From Spinacia oleracea (taxonomy: Eukaryota > Streptophyta > Magnoliopsida > Caryophyllales > Amaranthaceae), in the NCBI RefSeq assembly GCF_020520425.1, contig NC_079488.1, forward strand, positions 35,641,247-35,705,246: a stretch of DNA of 64,000 bases, written 5' to 3'. The position numbers and the translations under genes are program-made. Below are positions 23,182-57,355 of the stretch, piece after piece. The stretch's first letter is position 1, and every line of letters starts with the position of its first letter. Under the pieces are notes generated by a model that did not search any database, was not told the origin of the DNA, and saw nothing but the letters and a program-made list of their open reading frames with translations.

Positions 23182-23596
23182 ACCTTATTTATTGCCATTT
23201 AATTTGTGGGGAGATTTGAAGAAGGAAGAGCAAAAGACCCGGTAAACAAATAAGGGGTCTCTTCCTTTTCTCCTTCTTTTTAAATCCGTGGCTCCGCATG
23301 GAGAGACCCGTTGCTTTAAATAACGGGTCTTTTAGTTCTCCCTTTTTATTGTCGGTGGAGAGAATGTGGGCCCTATGGTAAATTAGAGACCCGTTAAATC
23401 AAATAACGGGTCTCTTGCTATTCTTAATTTAGTTTAGGTTGTCTTATTTCATTCATTAGAGACCCGTTATCTCAAATATTGGGTCTTTTATATTAAAGAG
23501 ACCCATTATCTCAACCAATGGGTCTTTTCTTTAGGGTCTCTTTGCCCATTTTTGTAGTAGTGAAACTCTAAAACTTTAAAACATTAAACAAGGACA

Positions 23597-34441: not shown

Positions 34442-34800
34442 CACTAGTAGAAAAAACCCTTATTGCAGCGGGCTTTTAGACCCCTGTTGCAGCGTACATC
34501 GTATGCTGCAACTGGGGGGCCTGCAACAAGTCTGAACTTGTTGCAGCGTACAATGTTCGCTTCAAAAAGTGGTTTTTTACAGCGTACATATGTATGTACA
34601 CTGCAACAAGTGTCAAAAAATTGGCAAAAATATTGACTTGTGGCAGCTTACAAAGTCGTGTATGCTGCAAAAGACTCCACTTTTTGCAGGGTACATTTAT
34701 TTGTACGCTGCAACAAGTCTGGAATTTTGCGAAATTTTTTGCCCTTGTTGTAGCGTACAATATATATGTACGCTGCAATAAAGCACTTTTGGCGGGAAAA
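34442..34800. repeat. Left subterminal repeat region of CACTA-1
   Basis: About ten copies of TTGCAGCGTAC / GTACGCTGCAA in both orientations within 350 bp. In CACTA elements such motifs are bound by the element's own DNA-binding protein before excision. The right end has the same motif (48560-48795, with variants such as GTACGCTGCGATAA). Confidence 0.85.
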
Positions 34801-36497
34801 TTCTAATTTTGTTTAGGGATACCTAGAGTGCCTTGCACCAAATATAGAAACCTGTCAAAACAATAATAGAATAACGCAACCTGTATAACAAATATCAAAA
34901 CAATAATTGGAGTTTTGTATATATCCCAAAACCAAAAGTGCACATACCGATACATTTAAATATATTTACATTCCAATTTCAACGTACGCATACATTTTAA
35001 CATAAAATATTGTTCTATAACATCTAAACCAACTCGATCAAGCGCCCTCAGGTCAATAATAAATACTTGGTGGTAAAAAACTTCGCCCATTGCTCACGAA
35101 CCACATCAATTTCCTCACTAGCATAAGGCGCAGTCCTCGGAGTATAGACCTTACAAAAACAAAAATTTGATGGAGCATTAGATCGATTAAATGCAAATGA
35201 AATGTCACATTTTAACATTCAAGCAACTAATGAAAATGTATTAATAGTCTAGAATACGAATCAATTAGTTACTTACCTCATCTAGCCGGCCTTCATAGTC
35301 ATGTTGTAACGTGACTATCTCTAACATGAACTTCATAACGTAATAGCCACACTCAGTTTCGCCGATTTATTGAGCACACTGATTAAGAAACATAATACTT
35401 TATCTTGCAAGGCAAATAGTTAATAAAAACAAAGCAAAAAGCTAATTAAGAAACATGTTATACCTCTATATGAATGGGTTTACACGACTTAAAACTCGTT
35501 TTATTCGGACAATTCCCACCATTGCACTTGTACACTTGGTATGCCCTAGAAAATTAACGAAACACGGGTACTCATGAATATGATTTTGGCTTAGGTTTCT
35601 TAAAGACTAATGTAATTTGTAAGCAAAAGAACTTACAAACTCAAGATTCCCCATGCATAATCTGTTCGACGTGGATCTCTAGCAGAATCGAAAATATATA
35701 CACAACCTCTGCGTAGGTCCATCACGTATAAATTCCAATGATTTCTGTATAATTTATAAATGATATAGTAAATATTTAATAACAATAATAGTTAATATTA
35801 TATATGAAACTTATATAACACACTTACTCTTGATTATATGGGATTAAAAACCAATTAGTTAGGTTAGGATTACCCATCTTCTCCTTTTCAATTTCAGCTT
35901 GGATTTTTTTTTTCAAATACATTGTTGGCGCTCCAGGGTCGGCCTTGATTCTAGTGCTTGACATAATCTCGGGACAAATGAACGAAATCCGAGACATTTC
36001 AAATGATTTGGTATTATCGTGCAATAAACACCTACAAAATAAACAAGATTACACTATTAAGATCGATAAAGAGAAAAAACTTCAAAGAAATAATAGTTAT
36101 ATTCACAACAATAAAACATTTAATTACAATATGTAGACTTGGATCGCTGAAATGTTTAAGCACGCCCCGCGAAGGAACTCTCCTATATCAGACGCAGTTA
36201 TGTATGTTTCTTGATCAAAATCCGAGTGCCAAACTGAGGCCGCCAATGGGATGGTATTATTATCATATATATCATCAGGCGCCGAAGTCATGATAAACTG
36301 CAAGTATTTGCATGACGGGCCAAGACCTTGAATTGCATCGTATGCAAGTCCCGCTTTCTTGCTTTTGGTGGTTGATTCTTGTGTTTTACGATCACAACTA
36401 CCCACCACCTCTAAGTTGGACTTAGGCTTAGAATTCGACTTCTTTGGATGCGAAAATTCCTATAACAATAGTCAATTAGCATTAGTCATGTAATAAG

Positions 36498-37050
36498 AAT
36501 CAAATGAGTCCTTAGGTTCTTTAGTTCAAAGTTGGAAGCGAAAATGTCATTTTAGCTCTATATATGACCTATAACGACCCAACGAACCTTAAATGTGCAC
36601 AAATAGGTTCAAATGAGTTTTAGAAACTTAAAACTATGCATATTAGTCGTGTAATAAGAATCAAATGAGTCCTTAGGTTCTTCAGTTCAAAGTTGGGAGC
36701 GGAAATGTCATTTTAGCTCTATATATGACCTATAACGACCCAACGAGCCTTAAATGTGCATAAATAGGTTGGAATGAGTTTTAGAAACTTAAAAATATGC
36801 ATATTAGTAATGTAATAAGAATCAAATGAGTCCTTAGGTTCTTCAGTTCAAAGTTGGGGGCGGAAATGTCATTTTAGCTCTATATATGACCTATAACGAC
36901 CCAACGAGCCTTAAATGTGCATAAATAGGTTCGAATGAGTTTTAGAAACTTAAAACTATGCATATTAATCATGTAATAAGAATCAAATGAGTCCTTAGGT
37001 TCTTTAGTTCAAAGTTGGGAGCGGATAGGTTCGAATGAGTTTTAGAGGGT
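36498..37050 (-). repeat. 161-bp tandem repeat in an intron of the CACTA-1 Ulp1 gene
   Basis: Repeat starts at AATCAAATGAGTCCTTAGG occur at 36498, 36659, 36820 and 36981, exactly 161 bp apart. There are three full units and a truncated fourth. The block lies between the linker exon (about 37180-37050) and the Ulp1 exon at 36459, so it is intronic. Read on the opposite strand the unit contains AACTTTGAACTAAAGAACC and CGTTATAGGTCATAT, which link it to the blocks at 43198 and 55290. Confidence 0.93.
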
Positions 37051-38174
37051 TTACCTTGGATGCTAAGTCTGTTGTCTTCTTTTGGGCCGCTAATACCGTT
37101 GTCTTTTTCTTGGAGCTACCATCCCTCTCTTTAGAAACGTTATACTTGGACTTATTTTTAGGAGGTGAAGTACAATCCTTTAAAATTCAACAAAAACAAG
37201 AGTAGGTAAGATGTCGAATGTGCTTGCGTGAACATATACATTCTAAACAATAAAACATATATACCTCGCCGTCTTCGAAAATCACTAAGTGTATGGGCCA
37301 TTGAACAAAACTACCCAGAGCACCGCCTAAGTTAGTGAAACCATCCCCCGTAGGTACCGGAAGAATATCATCAACATGTCCGTCGTAAACACAATCAACT
37401 TGGACTTTATAGTAACCAGGCTTCATCGATGTAAAATGTTGGGGCAATGCACCATCTGAGGGTTGTACCATACCATCCACCACGACAATGTTGTTGCCTG
37501 AAACTTTATCCTCAAGGGCAAGACGACATGGATTCCTTTCCTTCATAAACAAAGGTTTCAATGCAACTTTGTAAGTGATACAGATTATTAAGTAAATGTC
37601 AACTAAAAACATAAAAGGATCAAGCAACTATGTTAAAAAAGAGAAAGAGTGACTACATCGTACCTTTAGCTCGCGTGGTTGCGGCACTAAGATGTGACGA
37701 GTGGTTCTTGTAGCACTAACATCAAGGTCAACTCTGGCAGAATCATTTAAGTGGAGGTCATTAAGTATCGGGGTAGAAATGGAGTTTAGTTGTCCTGTTT
37801 TTAACAAGGTGCTTAGTTGCTTTTGGAGGGCCTCTGCCACCCTTTTCTCTAATTCACCTTCAAACTCCTTTTTCACAGAAGCTCTGATTGATTCGTAATT
37901 TTCTGATGAAGCTTCACCATGGTCACGTCTACTATGTCGATTACACGGACCGAAAGCCTTTTTGATACCAACCATGCCACCTGTTCCCTTGACACGCTAA
38001 CGATGATCTTTTTTCCCTATAGATTTAGTGAGGGCATCCTCACCCTGTTCGAAAGAAAGAATTCCTTTTTTCTCTTCTTCGATGCACTCTAACTGCCAAT
38101 TAGGAAAGTAAAATTACTTTATATTCTCTAATCAAAGCAAGTAAATATTAATTAATTATCACTACTTACACCTG

Positions 38175-39643
38175 TGAGGGGGTCGAAAAAGCACGAGGCT
38201 AATGCGTGACCTCGTCCCTCGTGGGTGTGACGATTCTTTTTATTCAATCAAGTGTAATTGGATTTCCTGTGAGTTTACACCTAATTGACTAGTAATATAG
38301 GAGTCGCCATTCAGTTTTTAACGACAATGAGAAAAACTGACTAAACCCGGTTATCGTGACATAAAGGGAGTGCAATTATGTTTGACCACGACGGCCGTAG
38401 GTTCCCTTGTGATCCCTGGTGGTGGGGATCGCTCAACGTACACCCGCAGGGTAGAGATTGAGGGTTCGGGGGACTGTAACTACCGAGAGGAGTACTCGCT
38501 CTTCGATAACTCCAGAGGAAGGATATCCTTACTAGCTCAGCATAAATAATTGAAGGGACATGCGTTAACTATTAAACTAATCTGAGTTGATTTTAACAAT
38601 ATGCAACATATAATACTAGATCGATCGCGATTATCTGATTTAAATAGCATTAAGGGACCTAGCATGATAATCCGATTTCCCAAAAATATTATATTTGTTA
38701 GGCGTGGTAGAACAATCAGATTTAGTTAGTTTAACAGTTCATAAAAAGGGAGAGGAAAGCAATTAAATCATCGAAAAGGGACACATTACGACGCACCCTT
38801 GAGAGGTGCGTCACGGTTCTCAGAAAACTAACCACTTTGACTTTGCTATTTCTCCTTTTTATTTAACGAATCTCAAATTATGGGACAGGATACGTTATGT
38901 TCGATTTATGGATCGATTGTGACAGAACGCGTGAATAATTTCGCAGCGTGAGGCTTAGGCTAGGGGTTGGAGTCAATACTCAGAATATGAATTGTGTGTT
39001 GTGATTTCACGTCGAACGTGGGCTATATTTATAGAAAAGAGTTTGTGGAAAGATAGAATTGCAGAGCTCTAATCCACAAAGAATTAGGAAAAAACACGTA
39101 CCCAGGTAATTCCAGCGCCCAGGCCTGGGCGCCGAAGATTTCGGCGCCCAGAGCCTGGTGTTGAAAATAGGGTCTGGGCTGTTTTCTTAGTCAGATTCGG
39201 ATTCCTGAAATCCGTAGTGTTTGAGACTTAATCGAGTCTTTTAGTGCGTATTAATTTCATGACGGAATGCGTCTGGGCCTGTTACGAACTCTAGGCTCGT
39301 TAGGATTTTAATTAATACGTAACTCTTATTTCCGAATCATATTAGGAATAGGATTCTCGCAGTTTTCTATCTCATTTAGGATTTATGTTGGAGTGCAACA
39401 CCTAATTCTGACAGGTTTCTATCTTTTATGACTTGCCACTTTTAGAAGCTACCCTTTACGGCAGTTACTATTTTTAGTAGGTTTCCATAAATAGCAGGTT
39501 TCTATAAATAGCAGGTTTCGGGTGAAACGAGAAGGGTGATTGAGATTCGTTATTTTATAGGAGATGCGTTGTCAAGTGGAGATTTATGTTTTCATCATCG
39601 AACCTTTCCCTTTCGGGAATGGGGACAAAAGTAGGTGTCTACA
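38175..39643 (-). mobile_element. Lone LTR (1,469 bp) of the element C family
   Basis: Runs from TGAGGGGGTCGAAAAAGC to AGTAGGTGTCTACA. It matches the LTR at 53307-59387 along its whole length, apart from CACTA-2 there. No interior follows on either side, so this is a solo LTR, the usual product of LTR-LTR recombination. It interrupts the Transposase_24 part of the CACTA-1 gene. The flanking 5-mers (ACCTG and ACAGC) do not match, so the target duplication is lost or the recombination involved two insertions. It contains the hairpin GCGCCCAGGCCTGGGCGC near 39116. Confidence 0.88.
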
Positions 39644-40278
39644 ACAGCTTTTGTTGCGATTTCAACAACTTCTGTATCGTTCGGGTCAATTTCCCACTTT
39701 CCCTCTTTATTTTGTACTTGATGGGCCAAAATTCACTCCTTTGATCTGTATTTTCTAACTCTATCAACATTTGAGGTCACTGATGAGTTCACGAGGAGCT
39801 ACTCGAGATAGGTAAAGCTGCATCTGGTGGAAGTCGTCCATGTTTTATCCAATCTAGTCGCTTTCTATTTTAACCCTTTTGGCCGGTGCGATGTGGGTTC
39901 TTGTTGCATGATGCACTTTTCCTCGCCTTTTCACTACGAAGCTGTCAAAGACAACATAAAAAGATGGAAATAAATGTTTTTTCTGATAACTTTTTGTCCT
40001 AGAACCAATGTCAGTTTGCTACATGAAAAACTCTTTAAGGACAAGTTAAAGAAATATTATCATTACCAATGACTCTGGCAGGAAATAATGTTTAACAAAA
40101 GTCTTCCAATCATCCTCTGTGATATGGTTGTAGACATCCCAAGGCATCTTGTTTGTTTGACTTTTTGGCTTATTTTCCTTCATAGTTATCCATCGGCGCA
40201 CCAACTTGCTCTTGAAACAACTAAATCATTTCGCCACACAAGAATGAAACTATTTCTCCCTCGGATGATTAGAATCAT

Positions 40279-41265
40279 GGATTAATTGACCAGAATAATC
40301 CCAACTTTAGGTGGTTTGCTTTTAATAATCCCAACTATAAGTTTTTTTTTAATAATCCGAACTTTTACACCTATTGACTTTTAACGGGCCTAGCAGGTAA
40401 GTTACTTACTGTAGCAGGTAATGTATGGCGTGGCGCTGACATGGCAATAGAGAGTTAGTTTTTTTTTTCTTTAAATGCATTTATTCCCCCTTATTTATTT
40501 TCCTTAATAAATCTCCTTATAACCCTTGTTTCTCATTTTGTCATTTTCTTTGATTCTCCACCCAAAATTTTGAATGTTTTCAAACCTCATATTTTAATGT
40601 GACATTTAATAGCTGAACGAAGTAAACCTCATATGTTAGATCCACCGGGTCATTTTCGGGTTCAAGGGGGTGTATTCCTTTGGTTTTTTTTTTTAAAGGA
40701 TACAGAGTTCAATTTATTTAAATGGGTTACTACCAGTAACTTACTAGTAGTAACAAGGTTGATGACCTTTGATTTCAGTTATTTGAAAGGGATACAACCA
40801 TAGCAGAAATGGTGGTTACGAAATGAAGCACGATGAAGATGATGTAGTATGATTTAAGTTTATTTACCTGCCAAATTAAACAAATAACACAAAGTAAAAA
40901 CAAAAATGTCAAAATGAACCTCCTTTTACAATCAAAAAATTGTCAAATTACAATCTAAGGTTAAACATACGAGCATGGAAGGTGTTTGATTTTTGTTTTT
41001 ATTTTATTTTACAGCAGATGAAAAACAAAAAGGGTTTAACTTTGGGTGAATGGATATTGAATGAATGACGTGTACCAAATTTTTTAGAGAGAAACTAAAA
41101 GCCCAAGTCCAAGTTTGCAAGTGTTTACCATTTTAACAGGTTACCGGTTTTTGGGATTGTTAAAAGTCATTAGGGGTAAAAGTTTGGATTATTAAAAAAA
41201 AAACCATAGTTGGGATTAATATAAGTGAAACGTTCAAAGTTGGGATTTTTCCAGTCAATTATTCC
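40279..41265. mobile_element. Non-autonomous MULE with perfect 9-bp target duplication
   Basis: 987 bp. The left end GGATTAATTGACCAGAAT continues AATCCCAACTTT. The right end on the other strand reads GGAATAATTGACTGGAAA and then AATCCCAACTTT. The TIRs run about 100 bp and include TTTTTTTTAATAATCC. Both flanks are TAGAATCAT (40270-40278 and 41266-41274), a perfect 9-bp duplication, diagnostic of the Mutator superfamily. No transposase ORF. It sits in an intron-like part of the CACTA-1 second gene. Confidence 0.92.
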
Positions 41266-41799
41266 TAGAATCATCAGTAATGTGGAACATAAGCTGTTAA
41301 TAATTTAAAAAAGTTAGATTATAAAAATAGTATTTAAATCAAATTAAATAATTTTAAAAATATACAAATCAAGTTAATATCCAATGCTTACCTTAGTCTC
41401 CTCCCAAAACCCCTTCTTGGTTTGCTCATCTACCTTTGGATATAATGGGACGTTAATATTAATTCTAGTAGCACAACTCCCAACTTGCTTCCCGTATTCA
41501 TGAGACCATTGTCCATCGGGGACATTATATACATTATACTCAAGGAACATAGGCTTAGCGACTTTAACACCTTTTGACGGACCACGGCCTTTAATGGTCT
41601 TTGTAATCGTACTAACATCTTGTGATTCGTCACCCGTTGTGGGAGTCTTGCCACCTTCTGATTCATGCCCAACAACAATTTGGTTTTCATTCATCGTACC
41701 TATGTTGTTCCTGCATCAAGTAAAACATACAGAAGGGTGGTTACAAAATGTGCGCGCAGCAGCCAACAACGAAAAATACAAAAAATGCAGCAGCAGATT

Positions 41800-42960
41800 A
41801 GTGCACGAGAAGGATATCAGATCAGTGCAGATCTGATCTGCGCTGATCTGTGCAGATCAGATCAGACCATTGCCAATTTCACAGATGCCAGCTTGATCTG
41901 TCAATTATTAACAGCTTCTACATGAATACAAGGATGAATGCTACACAAACAACTTCAATAAGCAATTATGTATGGTACAAATGTTGATGAACTTGATTAC
42001 TTGAATAAGTACATGATACGTTTTCATAATACAACAATTTTCCTATATATGGAATGGTTAATGAGATCATCCAAAATAGAGCTGGCAACTTCTGTTAAGA
42101 TATGAAGATGTCATGTTGCTCGTACTTTGTTGCACCCAATGTGAGATGGTTTAAATCATGCTGTTTGCATACAAATGAGACCGGCCAAAATAGAGCTGGA
42201 AACTTTTGACAAGATTGGTAATTTGATGCATGTTACACGTACTTAGGTAATAGTACTCCTGTTAGACACGGATATGTGACCAAAGATCACACTCAACTAA
42301 AATTCCCATGTTTTTGCTCAAATATGAAGGGTGAGGTGATAAAAAATGTACCGAACAGATGGAATCATGTAATCCAAATCAAATACAAGTATCTATGCTA
42401 TCAGATCAGTGCTATCAGGGTGAGGTGATCAGGGTGAGGTGATAAAAAATGTACCGAACAGATACAGATCAGTGCAGATCAAATTAGCACAGATCAGTGC
42501 AGATCAGATCAGCACAGATCTGATCTGCACTGATCTGTGCTGATCTGATCAACACAGATCTGATCTGCACTGATTTGTGCAGATCAGATCAGCACTGATC
42601 TGTGCAGATCAGATCAGCACATATCACAATGCCTCTCTCTCTCTTTCTAAAACAAAAACATAATTTTGATCAGCACATATCCAGTTTATCTCAACAAAGT
42701 ACGGAATATATTCAGTGCAGCATGTGAACTAAACACAAATTTGATGTCCTCCCCAGTCGTCCCCCCCCCCCCCCCCCCAAACCAACTATTGAACTCACTG
42801 CAGCAGCAGCAGATCAGTGCAGCGGCAGCAGATCAGTGCAGCAACAGCAGATCAGTGCAGCGGCAGCAACACAAATCAGTACACAGATCAGTACTGTGAT
42901 CAAATATTCAGTGCAGCAGCAGCACAGATCAGTGGAGCGACAACAACACAGATCAGTTTA
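41800..42960. repeat. GATCAGTGCAGATCAG repeat field and poly-C tract
   Basis: Two blocks of a short motif family: GCAGATCAGATCAGCAC and inverse copies (about 41810-41875 and 42460-42625), and GCAGCAGCAGATCAGTGCAG units (about 42795-42960). Because CAGATCAG/CTGATCTG occur in both directions, the DNA can fold into long hairpins. An 18-base run of C lies at 42761-42778. The field lies between the two CACTA-1 genes, upstream of the Transposase_24 gene, so a regulatory role is possible but not shown. Confidence 0.85.
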
Positions 42961-43197
42961 AAGTTTACCAAATACGTGAAACAACCACTAATCTTTCTTC
43001 CTACATGTCTATTCAATCGAACCTAATTTGCTTCAAGTCAAAAATGCAAAAAACAGAAGACAAGAACATTCTAAATGAGAAGAGCGAATGTTAAACAGAC
43101 ATGACAGGATTTAATTAAAATAAGCAAACTAAGCCTTCAAGTTTAAATATGATACGCCAACAAGTATTATCTTTCAAATGAACTAAAGAGGCATTTT

Positions 43198-43850
43198 GAG
43201 ACTTGTTTGGTAGACTCAATCCAATCAATTTATGCACATTTGAGACTTGTTTGGTCGTTATGGTTCATATTTATGCTAAAATGAGGCATTCTCGCTCCCA
43301 ACTATAAACTAACGAACCTAAGGACTCATTTTAACCTTTTAAATGATTAATATGATTAATTTTAACTTTCCAAGACTCGATCCGATCTATTTATTCACAT
43401 TAGAGACTTGTTTGGTCGTTGTGGTTCATATTTATGCTAAAATGAGGCATTTTCGCTCCAAACTATGAACTAAAGAACCTAAGAACTCATTTTTAGGCTA
43501 ATATGACACTTTCGCTCCCAACTTTGAACTAACAAACATAAACACTCATTTTAATCCTTTTAAATGATTAATATGATTAGTTTTAACTTTCCTAGACTCA
43601 ATCCAATCAATTTATGCCATTTGGGACTTGTTTGGTCGTTATGGTTCATATTTATGCTAAAATGAGACATTTTCGCTCCCAACTTTGAACTAACGAACCT
43701 AAGAACTCATTTCAATCTAATTACACGGTCCATATGATTGGTTTTAACGTTCCTAGACTCAATCCAATCAATTTATGCACATTTGAGACTTGTTTGGTCG
43801 TTATGGTTCATATTTATGCTAATTTAGTCAACTAAGGTCAATTTAGGTCA
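43198..43850 (+). repeat. Second tandem-repeat block of CACTA-1 (161-bp family, opposite orientation)
   Basis: Copies of GAGACTTGTTTGGTCGTTA (or its variants) occur at 43198 (partial), 43242, 43403, 43623 and 43785. Spacings are 161, 220 and 162 bp; the 220-bp step contains an extra 59-bp internal duplication. Each unit goes on with ATGCTAAAATGAGGCATT, CGCTCCCAACT and GAACCTAAGGACTCATTT. This matches the block at 36498-37050 read on the other strand. Confidence 0.93.
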
Positions 43851-44292
43851 ATTTATTCAACTAAGGGCAATTTAAGCCCGCTCGTTTCGATTTAGGTCAT
43901 TCTAGCTCAAGATTAGGAGACATGTTAATTAGCGCAACACTAGGAGAATACGCACAACTCACCAAAAGTAAATATGTGCGCTATTTTCCGATTCTGAGAA
44001 CTTCTGAAAAGACACAAATCACCGAAAGCTTCTGAAAATTTCTGACTCGGAGATCTCAAGTCATCTGCACAGAAAGTTAGAAAACTTCGGCCAGGAACAA
44101 AAGTAAGATGTGGAAGTACAGTAAGAATTAAAGAAAGCTAGAAAAGTATAGTCATGAACACAATGGATGTATAAAATAAGAATTAAAGATGTGGAAGTAC
44201 AAACTACACCTTCCTAAATGCTAGAAAAGATACATTTAATCTGATATTCAGTTAGCTAGAATTACCTATTCCCAGAAGCCAACTCATCTTAT
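43851..44292. other. CACTA-1 spacer between its two genes
   Basis: No frame of note. It holds a short run of GTCAACTAAGGTCAATTTAG-like copies at the start and AT-rich sequence after it. Confidence 0.5.
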
Positions 44293-47200
44293 TCATTTAC
44301 GGTTTATAACCCAAATTCCTTCCCTATGATCTGTACGCATATGATTAGTATTATTTGCATCTTCCTCCTCCGGTAACGGTTGAACAGCCGTTGATAATAG
44401 GGGTGTTTCATCGTACTTGTCATACTCATCTTCATCCACAACATCATCAATACCCAGAATATTTCTTGCCTTGGGCAACTGCACGCCATCTAGGATCAAC
44501 ATTGTCTACCACATAGAAAATTTTCTTAGCTTGTGATGCTAGAATGAATGGCTCGTCACTATCACTTAATCGATCAAAGTTAACCAATGTTAAACCCGGA
44601 AAAATATCATCTTGTTTCACCCCATTATGGTTGTTGGCCCACTTGCACCGGAATACAGGGATCGTAAATTTGTTGTAATCAATCTCCCATATTTCTTCGA
44701 TAACACCATAATATGATTGTGTCGCATCAACCGGTCTTCTATCCTTGGCGCTTCCATAGACCCTAGATGATGCAACATGCTTCACTCCACTATTCTGCAC
44801 CACACTCTTTTCATCTTGTCTTCTAGTGTAGAATGTGAACCCATTGATATCATACCCTTCATAAGACAGAACACATAGTCGAGGACCTCGAGCTAACCAC
44901 TGGACCATTTCAGAAACATCTAGATTTTTTTTCATTTCCTCGGCTACTTCCTTCTTAAACCAATCAACAAATGTGCGATTATGTTCTTGCATCAACGCTC
45001 TTTCCTTCAACTTAGGATTCTTTTGTTGCAATTCTAGCAAATGCTTATCTATGTAAGGATTGACCTCGGTAAGATGCTGCAACACACAAAGATGTGCCTT
45101 ATTCTTCCCTTCAGATGGAGGCGAGGTCACATTTTTACCAATTACCCCATGCCCTTTAAGCCTCCCTGCATGACGAGATTTTGGAAGACCTATTTGCTCA
45201 AACCTTGATAAGAATTCAGCTACATATTGAGATATCTCTTCCTCAAGGACTCCCCAAATGATACTACCCTCCGGCCTTGCCCGATTCTTTGTTTTGTCCT
45301 TTAAATGCCCAAAAAATCTCTCAAAAGGATACATCCATCTTAAGAACACCAGACCACATAGGTGGATTTCTCGAACTAAATGGACAATTAAGTGCACCAT
45401 AATATCAAAGAAAGATGGTGGAAAGTACATTTCAAATCGACACAAAGTTTCAACAATATCATTGTGCAAAGAATCTAATTTCTCCGGATCAATCACTTTA
45501 GCACATATTGAATTGAAAAACACACTAAGTTTTGTTATAACATGTCTCACGTGTTTCGGCAATATCCCACGAAGTGCAATTGGCAAAAACACATTAATCA
45601 TTACATGACAATCATGAGACTTCCTACCAACCAACCTAAGGTCCGAGAGAGATACTAGGCGCTTTACATTCGACGAATATCCCGAGGGAACCTTAATTCA
45701 ATGTAAGCACTCACAAAACTGCTTCTTCTCTTTTCTTGACATTGTGTAACACGCTGGAGGCAGATAAGTCTTAGTACCACCCGCACCAGATTTTTCAACA
45801 GGCCACAAATCTGGTCGAATATTCCTATTTTTCATATCTTTCCGCACATTCTCATTGTCCTTAGTCTTTCCAGGCATGTTTAGCAAAGTCCCAATGATAG
45901 CATCGCACACATTTTTCTCAATGTGCATTACATCGAGACAATGCCTAACCGACAAATCTCTCAAGTAGGGAAGATCCCATAATGGAGATACTTTCTTCCA
46001 CAAAACACCCTTTTTAGACTTGGACTTGTAGCACTTGCCGTATTTGGTTTCAACATTTTTTATTCGTTCATAAACCTGGGATCCTGTCAAAGGCGTATGA
46101 GCTACTCTTTCCTCGGTGAACCCATTGAATTCTTTCTTCTTCTTACGATAAGGGTGATATCGACTGAGGTGCTTCCTGAAATCTGGGTAAACATTTTTCT
46201 TGAAATTATCCAACCATGTGGGCTTCATGTCCTCTTCACATATAGGGCATGCTTGTTCTCCTTTGGTTTTGTATCCAGACAAGTTTCCATATGCCGGAAA
46301 ATCATTTATGGTACAAAAAACCATAGCTCGCAATGTAAAGCTTGAATTGGTGTGTGCATCGAACATTGAAACACCTTCATTCCACAATAATTTCAAATCA
46401 TCTATGAGTGGAGCCAGGTACACATCTATGTCATTTGCAGGTTGCTTAGGCCTCGAGATGAGGAGTGATAACATGATATGCTTCCGCTTCATACACAGCC
46501 ATGGAGGAAGATTATAAATTGCTAGAAGAACCGGCCATGTGCTATGTTGACTGCTTAGAGTTCCATATGGATTCACACCATCTACACATAAAGCAAGCCT
46601 TAGATTTCTAACCTCCTTAACAAATTCAGGATATTTCTTATACACATTTCTCCATTGAACAGAATCTGCAGGATGTCGAAGGTGTCCATCTTTCTTCCTC
46701 ACTTCCGCATGCCACCTAAAGTTTTTTGCTTGTTTCTTCAATGAAAACATAAGCTCAAACCTAGGTATGATTGGAAGATACCATAAAGACTTAGCAGGCG
46801 GGCCCCTCTTAGTTGAATTTGCCCCTTTACGTTTGTAGCGAGATGCGCCGCACGTTGGACACTCATCCAAATGTTCATGCTCTTTTCTGTAAAGCATACA
46901 ATCATTTGGGCAAGCATCTATCTTGTCGACCTCTAAGCCTAAGGGACACATCAATTTCCTGGCATAATAGGTAGAGGTGGGGGTATCATTCCCTTCCGGC
47001 AAAAATTCACCTACCCACTCCAATAAGGTGTCAAAGTGTTCATCTCTCCAACCACCTTTACATTTGAGGTTGTAAAGTATTGACGCACATTCCAACTTGC
47101 TGAATTTTGTACAACCGGGATACAAAGGAGTTTCAGCAGCCTTTGATACTTGTTCGAACATCTGAGGTTGTTCGTCCAAGTGATCTTTCAGCCCATCCAT

Positions 47201-47593
47201 CATCTCATTTATTTCATCATCTTCTTCCTCATCATCATCCGTCTCATTATTCTCATAAATATCTTCATCACTCTCATTACTCTGAACATCAAATTCATGG
47301 ACACTAGAACTTGGACGATCAGGTATTGTTTCACCATGCCAAAACCAAACATGGTAATCTTGCTTAAACCCACGGCGAAATAAATGATCCTCAATTTCAT
47401 CAATGTCACATAACCGCTTGATATTGTTACAATCACGGCAGGGACAATAGATTTTTTTGGCTTTTGTACTCCGTTGGTGTGCTAAAGCACATCTAATGAA
47501 CTCTGCGACCCCACTCAAGTATTCTGCCGTAGTATGGTCACCATACATCCAACGACGACTCATTACTAATAACAACAACAAAAGGTTCCACAC
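44293..47593 (-). pseudogene. CACTA-1 TNP2-type transposase, one stop and one frameshift from open
   Basis: Minus strand. The protein effectively begins MSRRWMYGDHTTAEYL with the transposase-associated domain (CPCRDCNN ... DHLFRRGFKQDYHVWFWHGE). It continues with an acidic stretch, CPNDCMLYRKEHEHLDECP (zinc-type), a long Transposase_21 core ending RHCLDVMHIEKNVCDAII, then DUF4218 (FPPSFFDIMVHLIVHLVREI ... YPFERFFGHLKD) and DUF4216 (FTFYTRRQDEKS ... IPVFRCKWANNHNGVK). A TGA at 45698-45700 replaces a probable Trp (CLH-stop-IKVPSGYSSN) and the same frame continues beyond it for 414 codons. Near 44460 a frameshift separates VAQGKKYSG from the acidic tail DVVDEDEYDKYDETPLL. It cuts and rejoins element ends. 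About 1,100 codons is normal for the family. Confidence 0.93.
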
Positions 47594-48559
47594 ATAAACA
47601 CATATATTAAGAAGTCACAAAATCATTAAGAAGTTCCGCAAATCTTTGATTACATCATTTAAGTTTATCAATGCTTCACTGAAGTGATATTAGAAGTCCA
47701 AAAACAATCCTAATAAGTAAAACGGAATGGATACTTAAGCATAGAATACTAATGTACACGTTTTATTATTACACTTACTGTACTTATCCAAATTTTATTT
47801 ATCGTAAAAATGATATGCACTTACTGTACTATTTATTTCAACTTTCAAAAGAGGAAAAGAGAAACTTTATGAAGATAATTAGATATATCAATACCTTATG
47901 CAATTGTTGAAATTCAAACAAGCACGATGATAGATTATGCTGGCAGTACGATCATCGCCCCTCTCTTCAACCATATGCGTATCTACCCATCTTCACAATT
48001 AACTGCAAATTAAAGAAATAAATGAACCACAACCAAAAAAATCAAAAAAAATAAAAATAAAAATAAAAGTTGAACAAACGAATATCAAAAACGAAAATTG
48101 AAAATCAAAATCAAAAACGAAAATCAAAACGAAAATAAAAAACGAAAATGAAAACGAAAATTGAACCCTAATCTGAAAACGAAAATCATAAACAAAAATA
48201 AAAATTGAACAAACCCTAATTACTTGTTGTGGCAAGGAGAGTAACGCCGAGCAACCACCGGAACCAGGACGCGACGGGGGGGCGCTGAACCCCCGGCTGA
48301 CCAAGATTATCGACCTTTCAGGGACTGAGTAGGCGCGCGAGAACAGAACGGGATGGGGGAGATGAGGCGAGAACACAGACACACCGGCGAAGACAGCGAC
48401 GCAGGGGTGAGCAACGCCTGAGTTCGACAGCGACGCAGGGCTGAGTTCGACGGCTGAGTTCGACGGCTAAGTTCGAAGGCCAGATGCTTGGATATTTGTT
48501 TAAGGGAAAAAGCTTGGAGAGAAGGAGTACGTTGAGCGCGGTTTCAAAATTTTGTTTAA
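47594..48559 (-). promoter_or_regulatory. Upstream region of the CACTA-1 transposase
   Basis: About 1 kb between the transposase start and the right subterminal repeats. It is AT-rich near the gene, with an AAAACGAAAAT-type simple stretch (48020-48215) and a more GC-rich part with short TTCGACGGCTGAG repeats (about 48415-48475). It must hold the promoter, but I cannot point to a TATA box with confidence. Confidence 0.45.
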
Positions 48560-48812
48560 GGGAAAAAGCTATTGACGTTATTGCAGCAAAATATTTTGAA
48601 ACGCGGACTTGTTGTAGGGGGCAATAGCATGTACGCTGCGATAACGTCTGGATGTTGTTGCGGGCTTTTATTTTGTACGCTGCAACATACACTTTCGCTG
48701 CGAACAATTAAAATGTACGCTGCGATAACCCTTTAAAGGGGGCTGAAACAGGGTTTATTTCTACTAGTACGCTGCAACAAGGGGGCTACAACAGGGTTTA
48801 TTTCTACTAGTG
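48560..48812. repeat. Right subterminal repeat region of CACTA-1
   Basis: Variants of GTACGCTGCAA and GTACGCTGCGATAA repeat, ending in TTTATTTCTACTAGTG. The last 50 bp contain a direct duplication of GGGTTTATTTCTACTAGT. Confidence 0.85.
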
Positions 48813-50863
48813 AATGTGTCTTTTGTGGATTATGGCCCTTCGTATGAAGGAGATTTTGAGTTGGAATATGCCATTGCTCTTAATGAGAGGCCTAGAAATG
48901 ATAACCCCAATGGTCAAAATTTTGCTAGGCAAGCACCTAGAGGGCCCCCTATTTATGGATCCCACCAAGGCCATGGCCAAGGAAGTGGGTATGATAACCA
49001 AGGCCGAGGTGGCTATAGAGCGCAAGGCTATCAAGGCCAAGCACCCTATGGTCAATCTCAAGGCTTTGGCAATTAAGGCCAATACAATCAAGGTAGTTAT
49101 AATCCCAACCATCAAGGTGGAGGGGGTTACAACTACACTTATGGGCAATATAGGGGTGCCTCTAGTGGGGATTATCCCTTGAACTTGGGAGGTCCGTATG
49201 GTGTGTCTCAATTTCCACCTCCCGGATTCAATGGACCAAGGACCTTTGGCAATCAATTTCAATCAAACCTTAGTGGTTATGACAATGCACCTCCACCACT
49301 CCCGCCTCTCAAGTCTAACCTTGAGGCTCTCATGGAGTCGTTTGTGGGGGCGCAAGTCAAAAAGAATGTTGAGTTTGAGGACGGATTTAAGCAATCCAAT
49401 ACTCATTTGAGAATGATTGAGACCCAATCAGCTCAACTCGCTAATACCATAAAGGAACAACAAGTGCATACTAGTCTCCCACCCCAAGGTCAACCTCCTA
49501 AGCAAATGTATGCAATCATGACAAGGAGTGGGAAGATTTTAGATGATGTTCCTAGAGCTAATGAGGTTTCTAAGTCCAATGGGAAGGATCAAGAGGGAGT
49601 CGTTGAGTCTAGCGACAATGATGTGGTAGAAGAGGAGCCTCCCATCGATGATGTGGGTGATACTCCTATACCAAAAGAGGCAACTCTTCTACCTCTCCCC
49701 ACTCCTAAACTCCCCTATCCTCAAAGATTTTTAGGCAAAAAATTGGATGATCAGTTTTCTAAGTTTCTTGATGTGATTAGCAAGTTGCATGTCTCATTGT
49801 CTCTCACCGAGGCACTTAAACAAATGCCCCGCCATTCTAGATTCATGAGAGATGTTCTTAATGGCAAGAGAAGTTGTGAACCCAAAGAGACCGTGCAACT
49901 CACGGAGAGTTGTAGCGCTCTAATTCAACACTCCTTTCCCCCAAAACTCAATGATCCCGGGCGTTTTTCAATCCCTTGTAGCATTCAAAAGCACAAATTT
50001 GATAATGCTCTTTGTGATTTGGGGGCAAGTGTGAGCATCTTGCCATATAAGACTTATGAGAAGCTCAATCTAGGTGATCTCTCTCCTACCGCTATGTCAT
50101 TACAACTAGCCGATCGATCGGTTATGTTGCCATTGGGTAGGATTGAGGATGTTCCCCTCGTTGTTGGCAAGCTTACTTTTCTTGTTGACTTCGTAGTCTT
50201 GGACATCGATGAGGATACCCATACCCCCATTATCTTGGGGAGGCCATTTTTGGCCACCGCGGGTTCTCTTATTGATGTGCAAGGGGGACTAATCACCTTG
50301 AAAGCGGGAGATTCAAAAGCTAGCTTCAAGCTTCCCCTTGGTGAAGGGTGTTTTGCGAAGACGAAAACTTGTATGAAACTATTGCTTGTATTGAGAGCTA
50401 TTGCTCACATGCTAACCCTTCTAACAACTTTCGTGTTTCTAAGTGTGATAATGAGCTTTCTAGGTCCTCTCCCGATGACAAGGAAGTCCATGTGATCCCA
50501 AGGGTGTTTGATGATAAGTTTGATGATGTCATAACCATCCCCGAGATATTTGGGATGCATATTGATGGTGATGTTGGGGCTAAAACCTCCAAAGTAATTC
50601 ATGAATCGGCAAACAAAGCCAAGACACCCAAGAAAGCCAAGAAGCCCAAGAAAGCCAAGGAAAAGCTTGGTGGCGGATTGTTTGGTTGGCACCTTATGAA
50701 TGGGGATGTCGGTAAATTTTTTGTGCCCATCGGGGAAAAAAGAAACTTTTTGACTAATGATGACCCCAAGTTAGTTGCATTTGACCCCCCATTAGCTTTG
50801 GGGGGATTCGTCAAGCTAATGACGTTAAACGAGCGCTACCCGGGAGGCAACCCGGTTGTTTAA
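48813..50863 (+). pseudogene. Gypsy gag C-terminal part and aspartic protease (after CACTA-1)
   Basis: The frame resumes as NVSFVDYGPSYEGDFELEYA and a Gly/Gln/Tyr-rich stretch. A TAA at about 49074 (GFGN-stop-GQYNQGSYNPN) interrupts it, and it reopens through 50495. Recognisable are YAIMTRSGKIL, LPYPQRFLGKK and the protease part CSIQKHKFDNALCDLGASVS, ILPYKTYEKL, FVVLDIDEDTHTPIILGRPF and LATAGSLIDVQGG. The catalytic motif is DLGAS, the Athila-type variant of D(S/T)G. A frameshift near 50350 leads into 50348-50863 (SPDDKEVHVIPRVFDDKFDD, a Lys-rich run, LNERYPGGNPVV and stop). Reverse transcriptase does not follow. Confidence 0.9.
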
Positions 50864-52914
50864 CTCTTAGATTTCATTTGCTTTAGTTTCGTAACTATTG
50901 TCCTATTTGTGCATGTTTTTGTGTGTTTCTTTGTTTTGGGCTCATGCTTTCCACCATGTGCCTTGTTGGTCGATTTTTCGGTGAGTTTGGTTCGGTTTTT
51001 ACCGGTTCTTTGCGGGACTTGCTCCCACGATATTTCCGGTAATATCCTTCTAACTCTATTGCATTCTTTAGGACGGGCATACATCATGTGGGGCATTTGG
51101 TTGGATGGGTAGTTGTGCCCCTCCTTGCTTGGTTTTAGGCCTTGAGGACATGGCCTAATTCTAGCTTGGGGGGAGTTTTGTTGTGTGGTTGCCGACTTGT
51201 GATGCTCATTGATATGAAATCATACCATTATGTGCACTTGTTTCTTTGTTTTCAGTTTGATTTAGTTTGATTTTAGTTTCTTTTCTTTTTGTTTGTTTCA
51301 TTTACTTCTTTTTGGTGTGTTTTCTTATTTTTCTTCCTTTTTCTTTGTTTTGATTTCCTTTTCGTCAAGGCAAGTTTTTCTAGGTTTTCTTAGGCAATAT
51401 TCTTGATTGGGGCAAATAAAATTGGAACTTGTAGATTAAAATGCTTTTATTCCTAATTGGTAGATTTTTACACGGTTCTTAATGTCTTGGGTCGAGTCTA
51501 GGATTTGGAGTCAAGGAAGTTGGTTAGAACTATGGGTAGCATGCGTCATGAACTCTTGGCTTGTGGTAAGATGGTGTCGATTTCTCTAGTGATTTGAAAC
51601 CGGAGAGAATGGTATTTGCTCCCTTGTGAGGTTCATGTTCAAATAATCCCAAACACATATTCATATATTGAGTGGCATGGATCCTTAGCATTGACTTTCT
51701 TATCTCCTGAGTTCGACCATTTCCTTCCCGAGACCGCGACCGAACTACTTTAGGGGATGATAGAGGCATTACTTTCGGTGACTATTTTTCTTTTTAGTTT
51801 AGGACTTTATTTTCTATTTTTCTCATATGTTTTTGTTTGCATTTACCCCTTTGCTAGCCATTTGAGCCTTGACCCTTCATTTCTTATGAGCACATTACAA
51901 GCCTAATAGCCTTTGTTTTGTTTTCACCCTTAGAAGTGATAGTGAATCTTAGAGTTATGATGCTTGTTGGTTTTGAATGAATATGCAAAGTTGAGGAATG
52001 ATTGTTATTGGTATGAATGGCAAAGTTTTGGAAGAATGTTGTATATAGTGAATAATTGATGCAAAAGCAAAAAGAGAGTAAAGTTTTGAAAAAGCCAAAA
52101 ATAGAGAAAAACAAGGCATGAAAAGTTTCATTTGAAACACAAAAAAAAAGAGAAAAATCAAATCAAGAAAAAATGCAAAAAAGGTTGTAGTTTAGAGTTG
52201 TTGTTGAATAAGCTTAGGGGTACCCCAAATAAGCGGTACGAGTTTATGTTTGGTTCAAAATGCTTGAGTTTAGTTCTATCATTGCGCTTCACTTTAGCTA
52301 TGAGCACCAAATTGCCAAATTTGTTCCGCACCTTACCCCTAGCCTACGTTACGCCCTAAAAGCCCTCTTGACCCTTTAGAGTTGAGTCATTGTCGGTGGA
52401 GGGAGGATTTGGTCAAGCTTAAGGAACAAGGTTGTCATGCTAAGATGTCGGGTAGCCTAATCTTGATTTTCTGGCGCCTTCGCGGTGTCTCGAGACGCTA
52501 TTCTCAAGGGTGAATAAGATCTAGAGATGTGACGTGGTATGCTCGGTTGTAAGGGGATTGACTAGTGCTTGCCCTTAGTTCGCTTTGCTTGATGCTCGAA
52601 TCTTTCACTCGATTTAGGACATTAGTTAGCGTGTACTCATTTATTTGATTAGTAATATTAGTGTTCTTCTATACTTGTTCCATAATAAAGGCCCCCCATC
52701 TTGGATTTTGTAGTTTAATTTCTTTTCTTCTCTTTTCTTTTCTTCTTCTTTTCTTTCTTTCTTTTCTTGGTTTGTGTTTTTCATTTTAGTCTTGCCTTGA
52801 TTAGATTTGCTAGATTTTGTTTTTGGTAAGTTTTTAGTATTAGATTAGTTTCTCATTCTTCCCTAGTTGAGTTTAGTTTGCTAGAGACTAGCAAACGCTT
52901 AGCTTGGGAGAGTT
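50864..52914 (+). other. Non-coding 3' part of the gypsy element with purine tract
   Basis: About 2 kb where pol would stand in a full element. I see no RT, RNase H or integrase motif on either strand. It includes TAGCTTGGGGGGAGTTTT (51162), a string often seen near gypsy purine tracts. TAGCTTGGGAGAGTT directly before the 3' LTR (52899-52914) is the more likely working purine tract. Confidence 0.7.
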
Positions 52915-53306
52915 TGATGAGCGGCATTTATGTCGCTCTAGGCCTAGGATTTTATAGAATATTATTATGCTTTTTGATAGTTTTGTATAGTTTTGTTGCA
53001 TTTTTATCCCAGAATTGTTCGAATAGAGCCCGTGCGATCGCACAGAATTTCTGTGTGTTCGCACGGGTCAGCAGAGTTGCCTCCAAAGTCAAGCAGGCTC
53101 GTGTGCTCGTGCCCCAGGAGTGTCTGAGCACGATCGCACGGATCGAAGGAAGAAATTCGTCGCTGAGCTCGCTCGCATGGAATCACAGCTCGTTCGCACT
53201 GATGCGATCGCAGCTGGGTATGCCCGTTCGCACGGCTGCGCGGGATTCCCTTTTCGAGTTTAAATCTCTCATTTTTAGGGGTTAGTATAAATTGAATTTT
53301 CTTTTT
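52915..53306 (+). repeat. 3' LTR of the gypsy element, shortened and interrupted
   Basis: Starts TGATGAGCGGCATTTATG like the 5' LTR. Compared with it, about 65 bp are missing after TTTTTATCCC and about 260 bp in the GCGATCGC-rich part. It then matches to GTATAAATTGAATTTTCTT, where element C begins. The remainder should lie outside the window. Confidence 0.85.
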
Positions 53307-55289
53307 TGAGGGGTTCGAAAAAGCACGAGGCTAATGCGTGACCTTGTTCCTCGTGGGTGTGACGTTTCTTTTTGTAAAATCAAGTGTAATTGGATTTCCT
53401 GTGAGTTTACACCCAATTGACTAGTAATATAGGAGTCGCCATTCAGTTTTTAACGACAATGAGAAAAACTGACAAAACCCGGTTATCGTGACATAAAGGG
53501 AGTGCAATTATGTTTGACCACGACGGCCGTAGGTTCCCTTGTGATCCCTGGTGTGGGGATCTCTCAACATACACCCGCAAGGTAGAGATTAAGGGTTCGG
53601 GGGACTGTAACTACCGAGAGGAGTACTCGCTCTTCGATAACTCCAGAGGCAGGATATCCATACTAGCTCAGCATAAATAATTGAAGGAACATGCGTTAAC
53701 TATTAAACTAATCTGAGTTGATTTTAACAATATGCAACATATAGTACTAGATCGAACGCGATTATCTGATTTAGATTGTTTTAAGAGACCTAGCATGATA
53801 ATCCAATTTCCCAACATATTATCTTTATTAGGCGTGATAGAACAATCAGTTTTAATTAGTTTAACAGTTCATAAAAGGGCGAGGAAAGCAATTAAATCAT
53901 GGAAAAGGGACACATTACGACGCACCCTTGAGAGGTGCGTCACAGTTCTCAGAAAACTAACCATTTTGACTTTGCTATTTCTCCTTTTATTTAACGAATC
54001 TCAAGTTATGGGACAGGATACATTCTGTTCGATTTATGGATCGATTGCGACAGAACGCGTGATCAGTTTTGCAGCGTGAGGCTTAGGCTTAGGGGTTTAG
54101 AGTCAATACTCAGAATAATAATTGTGTGTTGTGTTCTTTTCACGTCGAACTTAGGGCCCTATTTATAGAAAAGAGTTCGTGGAAAGATAGAATTGTAGAA
54201 CTCTAATCCACGAAGAATTAGGAAAGAACACGTCCCAAGTATTTTCAGCGCCCAGGCCTGGGCGCCGAAGATTTCGGCGCCCAGAGCCAGGCGTTGAAAA
54301 TAGGATCTGGGCTGTTTTCTTAGTCAGATTCGGATTCCTGGAATCCGGAGTGTTTGAGATTTAATCGAGTCTTTTAGTGCGTATTAACCTTGTGCCGGAA
54401 TGCGTCTGGGCCCGTTACGAACTCTAGGCTCGTTAGGATTTTAATTAATACGTGACTCTTATTTTCGAATCATATTAGGTATAGAATCACTAGAGGAAAA
54501 AAGATCAAGTGCGGGCTCATTTTAAGGGGTTAAGTGCGGGCTTTTACATGTGCAGCACATGGCTTGCCCGCACTTGATGTTTCTCAAGTGCTGCCAAAAT
54601 ATTGGCAGCACTTGATACTTGAAGTGCTGCCAATTTAAAAAATGAGCCCGCACTTGACGAAATTGGTGCTGCTAATTTTTCAATATGACCCCGCACTTGA
54701 CAAAGTTTGTGCTGCCAATTTTGGAAATGAGCCCGCACTTGAGAAATTTGGTGCTGCCAATTTTGAAAATTAGTCGCACTTGATATAAAAATGGGCAGCA
54801 CAAGCATAAAAAAAAGCCGCACTTGATATATAAATGAGCCGCACTTGATCTAGAAATTTGTTATGTAACTGATATCCCTGCTACATATATACAATTAGAC
54901 CACGCCCACTAATTAACCTCCATACATCACATAAAAAAAGTATTCAATTATATAGATAAATAAATTAAATAGTATATAATCATAAATATAAAAATTGATT
55001 ACATTACGATCGTACGGAAAATTAGCATCCATAATCTAAGATTCACTACAAGAAAATATCAAAGACAATAAATGGTAATGAAGTTTGCCAACTTTTCTCG
55101 AACTTCATTTATCTACTCAATACTAAAAGGCTACTCCCTCGGATTGTTGAATACCTAAAGAAGATCGACCATCAAGAAAAAAATATATGTTAGTTATATT
55201 ATAAATATTGTATGCTATAATAAAGTAAGACATAATTTGCTCACAACAATGAAATAATGAACCTTATAATAATAAAAATGGCTTCTTTC

Positions 55290-56200
55290 TCTCATAACTT
55301 TCAACCAATGAACCTAAACAAGTATTTTAAAATCTTTGGATGTTTAATGTACTTAGTTTTATGTTTCGAACACTCATTCTCACCTACTTTGGTCATGTTA
55401 CGCACATTTAAGGCTCGTTTTTTACTAAAATGACCTATTTCAGTCACAACTTTAAATTAATGAACCTAAATAAGTATCAAAAACCCTTTACATTTTTGTT
55501 AGACTTATATTAATGTTTCTAAGCCTCAATATCACCTATTTTGGGAAAGTTATGCACGTTTAAGACTAGTTTGTTTATTACAGGTCGTATTTTGACTAAA
55601 TTGGCTTATATCGCTCCTAATTTTGAACTAATGAATCTAAATAAGCATTTTAAACCCTTTTACATGTTTATTAGACTTAGTTTAATGTTTCTCAAACTCA
55701 TTCTTAACTACTTTGGTCAAGTTATACACATTTAAGGCACGTTTGATCATTATAGGTCACATTTTGACTAAAATGGTTTATTTCGGTCCTCACTTACAAC
55801 TAATGAACTTAAATAAGTATTTTAAACCTTTTACATGTCAAATATATTTCGTTTTAAGTTTAAATACTCATTCTCACCTACTTTGATCAAGTTATGCAGA
55901 TTTAAGGCTCGTTTGATCATTATAGGCCACATTTTGACTAAAATGCCTGATTTTGGTCCCAAAATTAGACTAATGAACTTAAATATGTATTTAAAACGAT
56001 TTACATGTTTAATACACTTAGTTTTATGTTTCAAAGACTCATTATCACCTACTTTGGTCAAGTTTTGCACATTTAAGGCTCGTTTGTTCATTATTGTTAA
56101 TAGTTTGACTAAAATGGCTTATTTCGCTACTACCTTTCAACTAATGAACTTAAATAAGTATTTTAAACCCTTTATATGTTAATTAAACTTATTTTAATAT
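55290..56200 (+). repeat. Tandem repeat of ~150-172 bp in CACTA-2
   Basis: About six degenerate copies. The phrase TAATGAACTTAAATAAGTAT (or variants) recurs near 55311, 55450, 55629, 55802, 55972 and 56140. The phrase TATGCACGTTTAAG or its variants recurs at about 151, 172, 170 and 171 bp steps. The unit shares its order of phrases (CACATTTAAGGCTCGTTT, GTTATAGG-like, CTAAAATGGC, CGCTCCTAATTTTGAACTAA) with the CACTA-1 blocks. Confidence 0.88.
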
Positions 56201-57245
56201 TTCAAAGACTCATTTTCAAATCAACTTGAAGGTCAAAGCAAGCACAAACAATCAAATTGAATGAGCAAAAGTCCATTTAGGCATAAAGTCACATTTATAT
56301 GTCACTGGAACATGGAATTTCCATTACCCCTATAGTGCTCAATTCCAAATTATTAATAGTACATCATAACATGGTTACTTAAGAGCCACAAACTAAGCAA
56401 TGTAAAACGACAACCTTAATTTACATGATTCACTGTAATAAACCCTTAAACCACCAATGCAACTCGATGCCTATTTGACACATAAATAATAAGCAAATCT
56501 CAACAGATGTTTGCATGTACAATCCTGAAAAAAATATACATCAACAACAAGAGATTAACACACTCCCAGAGCAAAGTAACCTGAATAATAGAACCTCCAA
56601 TATAAAGTGCTTCAAACCTTCTTATTTCATTTTAAAAAAAGCAAACATCCAACACCAATCATAACAAATGAGATCCTAAAACCCATAGAATAGTAGAACC
56701 GGCCTCCTAAGTCCTAACACCATTCTAATCAGCCTAATCCCCCACACCCAAAATTAAATGATGACAAAAAGAAAGAGACAAGTAATAACGCAGTAGCAAA
56801 TATGATAGAAATAAATGAGAGTACCAATTTCGATCTCATTACCACACACCTAACATCACATTGACAACCTACGTTCCTTAGTTATTCTAAACACTAATAA
56901 GAGTCCACAACACTTAGCAACCTAACTTCCTTTGGTTATTCTTACTGCCAAAATCGGTAAAAATAAAGTGAAAATGAGAAATATTAGTTACTAAGTATAG
57001 CAGAATGTGAATATTTAGAACAGGAAGGTGTAAATCTTCCCCACGAGAAAGAGCAACAAGCAAAACAATAGATCAAACAAGACATGGAATAGCAATATCC
57101 AAAAAATAAGTGTTTACGATGGATGGGTTAAATAATTTCTTCAAGTAACAATGTTGTCTTGAAAATTAAGCACAATATACAACTAAACGGCATGGACAGA
57201 TTGATATCTGACATATAAACAAGAATCAAAAGTCAAAAAAAATAC
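56201..57245. other. CACTA-2 interior, nothing recognised
   Basis: AT-rich. It may be introns or flanks of the captured genes. No frame resembles a known domain. Confidence 0.4.
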
Positions 57246-57355
57246 CATATATCACATGCATCACAAGCTTTAGAAGTATCAAGAGGCAATCCTTCTTCAT
57301 AGGTCACTGAACCGCTCCGCATTTTGCAGCCATCTCCGTCCAACCAGGTAGTTGT
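57246..57355 (-). pseudogene. Possible captured exon, gene unknown
   Basis: A 110-bp minus-strand segment between TGTAG and GTATTTTT splice-like borders. One frame is open throughout: TTWLDGDGCKMRSGS, VTYEEGLPLDTSKACDA, CDIW. It does not match the CCS1 sequence I remember and I cannot name it. It could come from a second host gene. Confidence 0.4.

What the first reader, a model, noticed from the sequence alone, without database searches (positions are those of the whole stretch)
36498..56200. One ~161-bp tandem-repeat family shared by two different CACTA transposons, in opposed orientations inside one of them
Blocks at 36498-37050 (minus sense, exact 161-bp period), 43198-43850 (plus sense, 161/162-bp steps) and 55290-56200 (plus sense, 150-172 bp) share the same phrase order: CACATTTAAGG / GGTCGTTAT / CTAAAATGA / CGCTCCCAACTTTGAAC / GAACCTAAGGACTCATTT. 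CACTA-1 and CACTA-2 have unrelated subterminal motifs, so the family was either inherited from a common ancestor and kept, or passed between them. In CACTA-1 one block lies in an intron of the Ulp1 gene and the other between the two genes, facing each other, so the RNA could form long double strands. I know of no described function.
Basis: partly seen in the sequence, partly recalled or inferred. Interest (0 to 1): 0.8.

Follow-up and report, generated by a model that had tools for sequence, protein, structure and literature searches.

The report
Satellite repeats carried inside plant transposons
Two CACTA jumping genes in spinach that share no other recognisable sequence carry the same family of ~161-171-base tandem repeats; in one of them the repeats fill an intron whose length mostly changes by whole repeat units from copy to copy, which gives a view of how mobile elements can carry and enlarge satellite DNA.

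Summary
Blocks A (36481-37025, minus), B (43205-43822, plus) and C (55275-56228, plus) are one repeat family: alignment scores 316, 272, 133 against shuffle maxima 35, 37, 39. CACTA-1 is 34442-48812; CACTA-2 is 54488-59094, with an empty site. Contig lengths point to Spinacia oleracea.

A/B arrays lie in CACTA-1-family sequence in 24 of 24 regions examined and 3 of 3 further places. Array A fills an intron of the second gene; an annotated spinach protein lacks it. In 10 copies the splice sites are kept; 8 of the 9 others differ from the window by 3-26 whole units, one does not. B is inverted; in four copies A and B are 91-95% alike over 0.8-1.1 kb.

C arrays sit at other loci, in at least three flank settings. 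One A-type array over 9 kb abuts CACTA-1.

Most likely this is transposon-borne satellite DNA changing by unequal exchange. No conserved core was found; RNA effects and the route between families are untested. A new variant of a known kind.

The parts
34442..48812 (-). CACTA-1 element, 14.4 kb, TIR CACTAGTAGAAA, TSD AAT, genes on the minus strand
   Evidence: TIR/TSD scan, 17 of 20 terminal bases alike; other copies align to its pieces
36460..37054 (-). phase-0 intron of gene 2 almost wholly made of array A (GT...AG)
   Evidence: P0121 residues 566 and 567 map to 37055 and 36459; GT and AG kept in 10 of 10 copies
36481..37025 (-). array A, about 3.4 units of 161 bp
   Evidence: TRF, nhmmer
43205..43822 (+). 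array B, inverted relative to A, between TnpD and gene 2; one partial extra unit (220-bp step)
44296..47614 (-). TnpD: Transposase_21, Transpos_assoc, DUF4218, DUF4216; a stop codon separates two long ORFs at 45697/45698
   Evidence: ORFs, Pfam, tblastn with relatives
35633..41715 (-). gene 2, split into exons: DUF8039-type protein with a weak Peptidase_C48 (Ulp1) match
   Evidence: P0121-P0124
54488..59094 (.). CACTA-2, 4.6 kb, non-autonomous, subterminal motif GCACTTGA/GTGCTGCC, TSD AAT/GAT, inserted in an LTR
   Evidence: empty site by comparison with the LTR copy at 38175-39643; motifs; no hit of 120 tnp2 relatives
55275..56228 (+). array C, about 6 units of 150-172 bp

Best explanation
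The ~161-171-bp unit is satellite DNA that lives inside CACTA transposons. In the CACTA-1 family one array sits in an intron of the second gene and a second, inverted array lies between the genes. Shown: same flanks and splice sites, with intron length changing mostly by whole units; A-type units also in the inverted B position of some copies. Inferred: arrays grow and shrink by unequal exchange or slippage (perhaps during gap repair after excision), are tolerated because splicing removes A, and spread with transposition; units passed from A to B at least once. Some arrays reach satellite size. A diverged subfamily (C) is carried by other elements, CACTA-2 among them; whether by descent or by array-mediated recombination is open.
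For: Homology above shuffles. 20 of 20 fetched A regions and 4 of 4 fetched B regions carry CACTA-1 pieces; so do 3 further B places read from short loci (C4:80329714, C1:81511687, C6:76934772). Intron lengths: 8 of 9 other copies differ from the window by 3, 5, 6, 6, 10, 15, 16 or 26 units with a common offset of 10-11 bp; GT and AG kept in 10 of 10. Annotated protein P0121 lacks the array. B-position arrays hold at least one A-type unit in 7 loci: L011, L012, L014, L015, L019, L024, L028. An array of 59 units with no gap of 300 bp, 9.5 kb, is joined to CACTA-1 sequence, and listed A-type hits go on to C1:42045646. C arrays lie near CACTA-2 5' ends at 4 non-window places and beside the window's downstream flank at 10.
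Against: Loci were picked because they hold arrays, so the share of CACTA-1 copies without an array is unknown. One of the 9 copies (L021) is off by a fraction of a unit (9.83). A-type units at the B position are in general no closer to the A array of their own copy than to those of other copies, so the transfer looks like an older shared event. In L022 and L027 the CACTA-1 match is weaker (mostly 82-87% where the ends match; 77-81% as joined stretches). The setting of about 20 of 35 non-window C entries was not determined. The one flank read beside a C array (L044) matches nothing in the window.
Confidence: 0.78

Rival explanations
1. The arrays act in cis: A and inverted B transcribed in one RNA fold into long double strands that feed small-RNA silencing or tune expression of the element.
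For: Facing orientation at 8 of 9 A entries with a listed B entry within 15 kb. In L014 the inverted identity is 94.8% over 1136 nt. RNAduplex energy of A with antisense B in the window is -445 kcal/mol, in L014 (first 1200 nt of A) -1736 (no shuffle control).
Against: Window, L010 and L021 arms are only 77-79% alike, poor for long perfect duplexes. No small-RNA or transcript data. Invariant columns of the three consensus units are not clustered (95 of 159; longest run 8, permutation mean 8.6).
Confidence: 0.12
2. Vertical inheritance: the array was already in the common ancestor of CACTA-1 and the CACTA-2 lineage and all else between them has diverged.
For: A second spinach DUF8039 family (P0123, 52% identical to the query protein) exists; at one locus C units lie about 7.5 kb 3' of its exons in the gene's sense, as A does in CACTA-1.
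Against: By coordinates one such neighbour among 35 C entries and 64 gene candidates is expected about 0.05 times by chance (my own estimate), so it is weak. In 7 listed P0123-family copies only 379-416 bp separate the exon ending at residue 441 from the one starting at 505 or 511, so there is no array of several units. Non-coding repeats outlasting all other sequence would be odd; CACTA-2 has no gene to compare.
Confidence: 0.3
3. An independent genomic satellite was captured separately by each CACTA family, as proposed for quinoa.
For: Published precedent with a 171-bp satellite in quinoa CACTA elements (PMC8978399, sections 10 and 15 read).
Against: All A/B places examined, and one side of the long array L043, are CACTA-1 linked. 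The quinoa unit is not recognisably related to ours.
Confidence: 0.25

Closest known systems
Jozin-type CACTA elements of Chenopodium quinoa with a 171-bp satDNA array (Belyayev et al. 2022, PMC8978399)
   Same: tandem array of nucleosome-length units inside complete CACTA elements of the same plant family, dispersed over chromosomes
   Different: unit unrelated in sequence at the sensitivity used; array near the 3' end, and no intron placing or inverted second array described in the two sections read
Tetris foldback transposon and TIR-220 satellite of Drosophila virilis (PMC4079207, abstract read)
   Same: internal tandem repeats of a DNA transposon, in inverted orientation, that also form longer satellite-like arrays
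   Different: there the repeats are part of the terminal inverted repeats; here they lie in an intron and between genes, and the CACTA termini are separate
CficCl-61-40 satellite from Jozin tnp2 (PMC7320549, abstract read)
   Same: satellite linked to CACTA elements in a chenopod
   Different: about 40-bp monomer derived from the transposase gene; ours lies in an intron and between genes

Membership tests
CACTA (En/Spm, CMC) transposon: CACTA-1 | CACTA...TAGTG termini with 3-bp TSD | tested here: met
   34442-48812, TSD AAT, 17 of 20 terminal bases alike
CACTA transposon: CACTA-1 | tnp2 transposase | tested here: met
   PF02992 E 1.2e-84, PF13963, PF13960, PF13952
CACTA transposon: CACTA-2 | CACTA termini, 3-bp TSD, empty site | tested here: met
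   54488-59094; 11 of 16 terminal bases alike; TSD AAT/GAT, one mismatch, with the empty site reading GAT
CACTA transposon: CACTA-2 | own transposase | tested here: not met
   no hit of 120 tnp2 relatives by tblastn at E 1e-3; taken as non-autonomous
Satellite DNA | long tandem arrays | tested here: met
   59 units in L043; the other arrays are shorter, about 2 to 34 units, some cut by the locus end
Quinoa CACTA-borne 171-bp satellite | monomer sequence | tested here: not met
   best score 26, against the reverse strand of C, reached by 12 of 200 shuffles; no nhmmer hit
Spinach satellite SolSat01-171-s (MN918730, PMC7840529) | monomer sequence | not testable with these tools
   sequence not in the passages seen
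RNA-silencing hairpin locus | transcript and small RNAs over both arms | not testable with these tools
   no RNA data

The most novel reading that the evidence does not exclude
The arrays are recombination hubs: because different CACTA families share the unit, repair of excision gaps can switch template inside the arrays, producing chimeric and deleted elements that keep an array, moving the unit between families, and now and then releasing an array that grows into a free satellite. Observed fits: array joined to W47116 in L017, A fused to B in L024, array joined to W39783 in L043, and C arrays with at least three flank settings. Caveat: loci were chosen for holding arrays, so derivatives that lost them were not sampled.
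Probability: 0.25. Interest if true: 0.7.

Novelty: new variant of a known kind. Interest (0 to 1): 0.5.

Why it matters
How satellite DNA starts is an open question. Here copies of one transposon family carry the same array at the same intron position, from about 3.5 to 30 units, with flanks that stay alike, so growth and exchange of a satellite can be followed in one genome. It also shows an intron passing through an eight-fold length change with its splice sites kept.

Tried and rejected
Relation to the quinoa 171-bp satellite: not supported at this sensitivity. Conserved core in the unit: not found. Internal sub-repeat of the unit: half-against-half score 13, low, no shuffle control. Unit in other collections: none in plasmids, none in viral contigs with one pattern. 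Unit words printed in papers: 6 words of 13-14 letters, no paper held them. Transposase remnant in CACTA-2: none. DUF8039 remnant beside C in CACTA-2 or L044: none. P0123 family as the home of C arrays: only one weak neighbour. Searches with L044:320-1000 and window:36000-36440 did not complete, and window:58700-59094 was not repeated.

Full report
Setting. The window is G000:C2:35641247-35705246 of an 894-Mb assembly in 242 contigs.

Check of the observation. TRF finds the three arrays. Alignment against 200 dinucleotide shuffles per pair is far above chance in the stated orientations; in the opposite ones two of three scores equal the best shuffle and one the mean. An HMM built from 8 full units finds no other significant place in the 64 kb.

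The elements. CACTA-1 (34442-48812, TSD AAT) lies inside a Gypsy-type element (my reading of the ORFs). It codes for a tnp2 transposase and a second gene. CACTA-2 (54488-59094) is inserted in an LTR; the empty site is seen in another copy of that LTR, itself an insertion in CACTA-1 that is missing there in 10 of 10 other copies covering the place. CACTA-2 has other subterminal motifs and no transposase remnant. Outside the arrays the two elements share no sequence found by blastn.

Genome context of A and B. The A unit gave 161 matches and the B unit 307, with 40 of 1263 and 40 of 1483 candidates scored and about 150 rows shown, so counts are lower bounds. I grouped the rows shown into 30 A and 39 B entries. 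I fetched 20 regions of 10 kb covering 21 of the 29 non-window A entries: all 20 carry CACTA-1 pieces beside the array, weakest in L022 and L027. Four regions of 8 kb from the 38 non-window B entries do too; L039 and L041 are derivatives with CACTA-1 ends. Of the 18 short loci (3.2 kb) brought by the searches, 15 show CACTA-1 pieces, two of these being the window itself; L002, L003 and L006 are all array and lie within L009 and L013, which have CACTA-1 flanks; three places were new. Loci were chosen for holding an array, so this says where arrays are, not how many elements lack one.

The intron. Residues 566 and 567 of spinach protein P0121 (91% identical to my joined query over 73% of it) map to 37055 and 36459, which makes 36460-37054 a phase-0 GT-AG intron. 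Nine other copies hold both flanks. GT and AG are kept in all ten; intron length runs from about 0.6 to 4.8 kb; eight of nine differ from the window copy by 3, 5, 6, 6, 10, 15, 16 or 26 units plus 10-11 bp, and L021 by 9.83. Another spinach record, P0122, ends by reading into the array, so the annotation is not uniform.

The inverted pair. Of the 9 A entries with a listed B entry within 15 kb, 8, window included, face each other; the ninth (C5:48610143) is a mixed array at the B position, L011. In L011, L012, L014, L015, L019, L024 and L028 the array next to 43823 holds one or more A-type units. Inverted identity of the two arrays is 94.8% over 1136 nt in L014, 94.3% over 830 in L024, 91.3% over 1145 in L012, 91.0% over 860 in L015 and 87.1% over 651 in L028, against 77-79% in the window, L010 and L021. 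A-type units at the B position are in general no closer to their own element's A array than to others, so one older shared event is likelier than repeated conversion. L020 holds A-type units in the inverted sense.

Satellite-sized growth. L043 is one array of 59 units over 9.5 kb, running to the end of the fetched piece, flanked on the other side by CACTA-1 sequence; listed A-type hits continue to C1:42045646. C-type hits are also spread over about 9 kb at C2:43902067-43911108.

Array C. The C unit gave 240 matches (40 of 1487 candidates scored), which I grouped from the rows shown into 36 entries, window included; apart from the window none lies within 30 kb of a listed A or B entry. CACTA-2 5' ends (40 scored of 476 candidates) lie within 5 kb of a C entry, same strand, at 4 of 39 non-window places. 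The stretch just 3' of C in the window has 13 hits, all 13 candidates scored; 10 of 12 non-window hits lie beside a C entry, matching 168 to 473 bp. The two sets do not overlap outside the window, but the 5'-end list was cut at 40. The flank of a further C array, L044, matches nothing in the window. So C arrays occur in at least three flank settings.

A second gene family. Protein P0123 is 52% identical to the query. Of its listed places one (C6:78015773-78016969) lies about 7.5 kb from C units in the same sense. Against an old shared intron array, 7 listed copies have only 379-416 bp between the exons that flank that intron.

Mechanism. Shown: homology, place, unit-step length change in most copies, kept splice sites, inverted pairing, mixed unit types, one long array. 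Inferred: unequal exchange or slippage as the cause, spread by transposition, tolerance through splicing. The invariant columns of the three consensus units are not clustered, which gives no support to a conserved binding core. Double-strand RNA remains possible but untested.

Literature. PMC8978399 (abstract, sections 10 and 15, and searched passages) reports a 171-bp satellite array in quinoa CACTA elements, read there as capture. PMC7320549 and PMC4079207 were seen as abstracts and outlines. Spinach repeat papers PMC7840529 and PMC6337768 were seen as passages; these passages link no satellite to CACTA. PMC2613891 was seen as passages, and PMC4158355 gave no passage for the words asked. I found no report of a CACTA element with a variable satellite intron or an inverted satellite pair in the listings of searches; most papers of subscription journals are not in that library.

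Noticed in passing
window 40279-41265: About 1 kb insertion in CACTA-1 with 107-bp terminal inverted repeats (82%) and a 9-bp overlap at the empty site in L009 and others, as for a Mutator-like element (the family label is recalled).
   Followed up: partly
window 38173-39643: LTR-like insertion (TG...CA, flanks ACACC/ACAGC) in CACTA-1, absent there in 10 of 10 other copies covering the place; a second copy hosts CACTA-2.
   Followed up: yes
window 8157-9535 and 17177-18555: 1379-bp direct repeat at 100% identity, 9 kb apart, like the two LTRs of a very young element.
   Followed up: no
window 33888-33993: Rfam snoR71 match (42.6 bits, cut-off 40) inside the Gypsy-type element, minus strand.
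   Followed up: no
window 19761-23562: A third CACTA-like element, termini CACTACTACAAAAAT, TSD AAA, without a significant match to the unit.
   Followed up: no
window 55826-56182: Array C has an open frame of 118 codons through its 171-bp units (57 codons each), probably chance.
   Followed up: no
P0002, P0005, P0006: Close tnp2 relatives (65-79%) are filed under the frog Phyllobates terribilis, which looks like plant contamination of that assembly.
   Followed up: no
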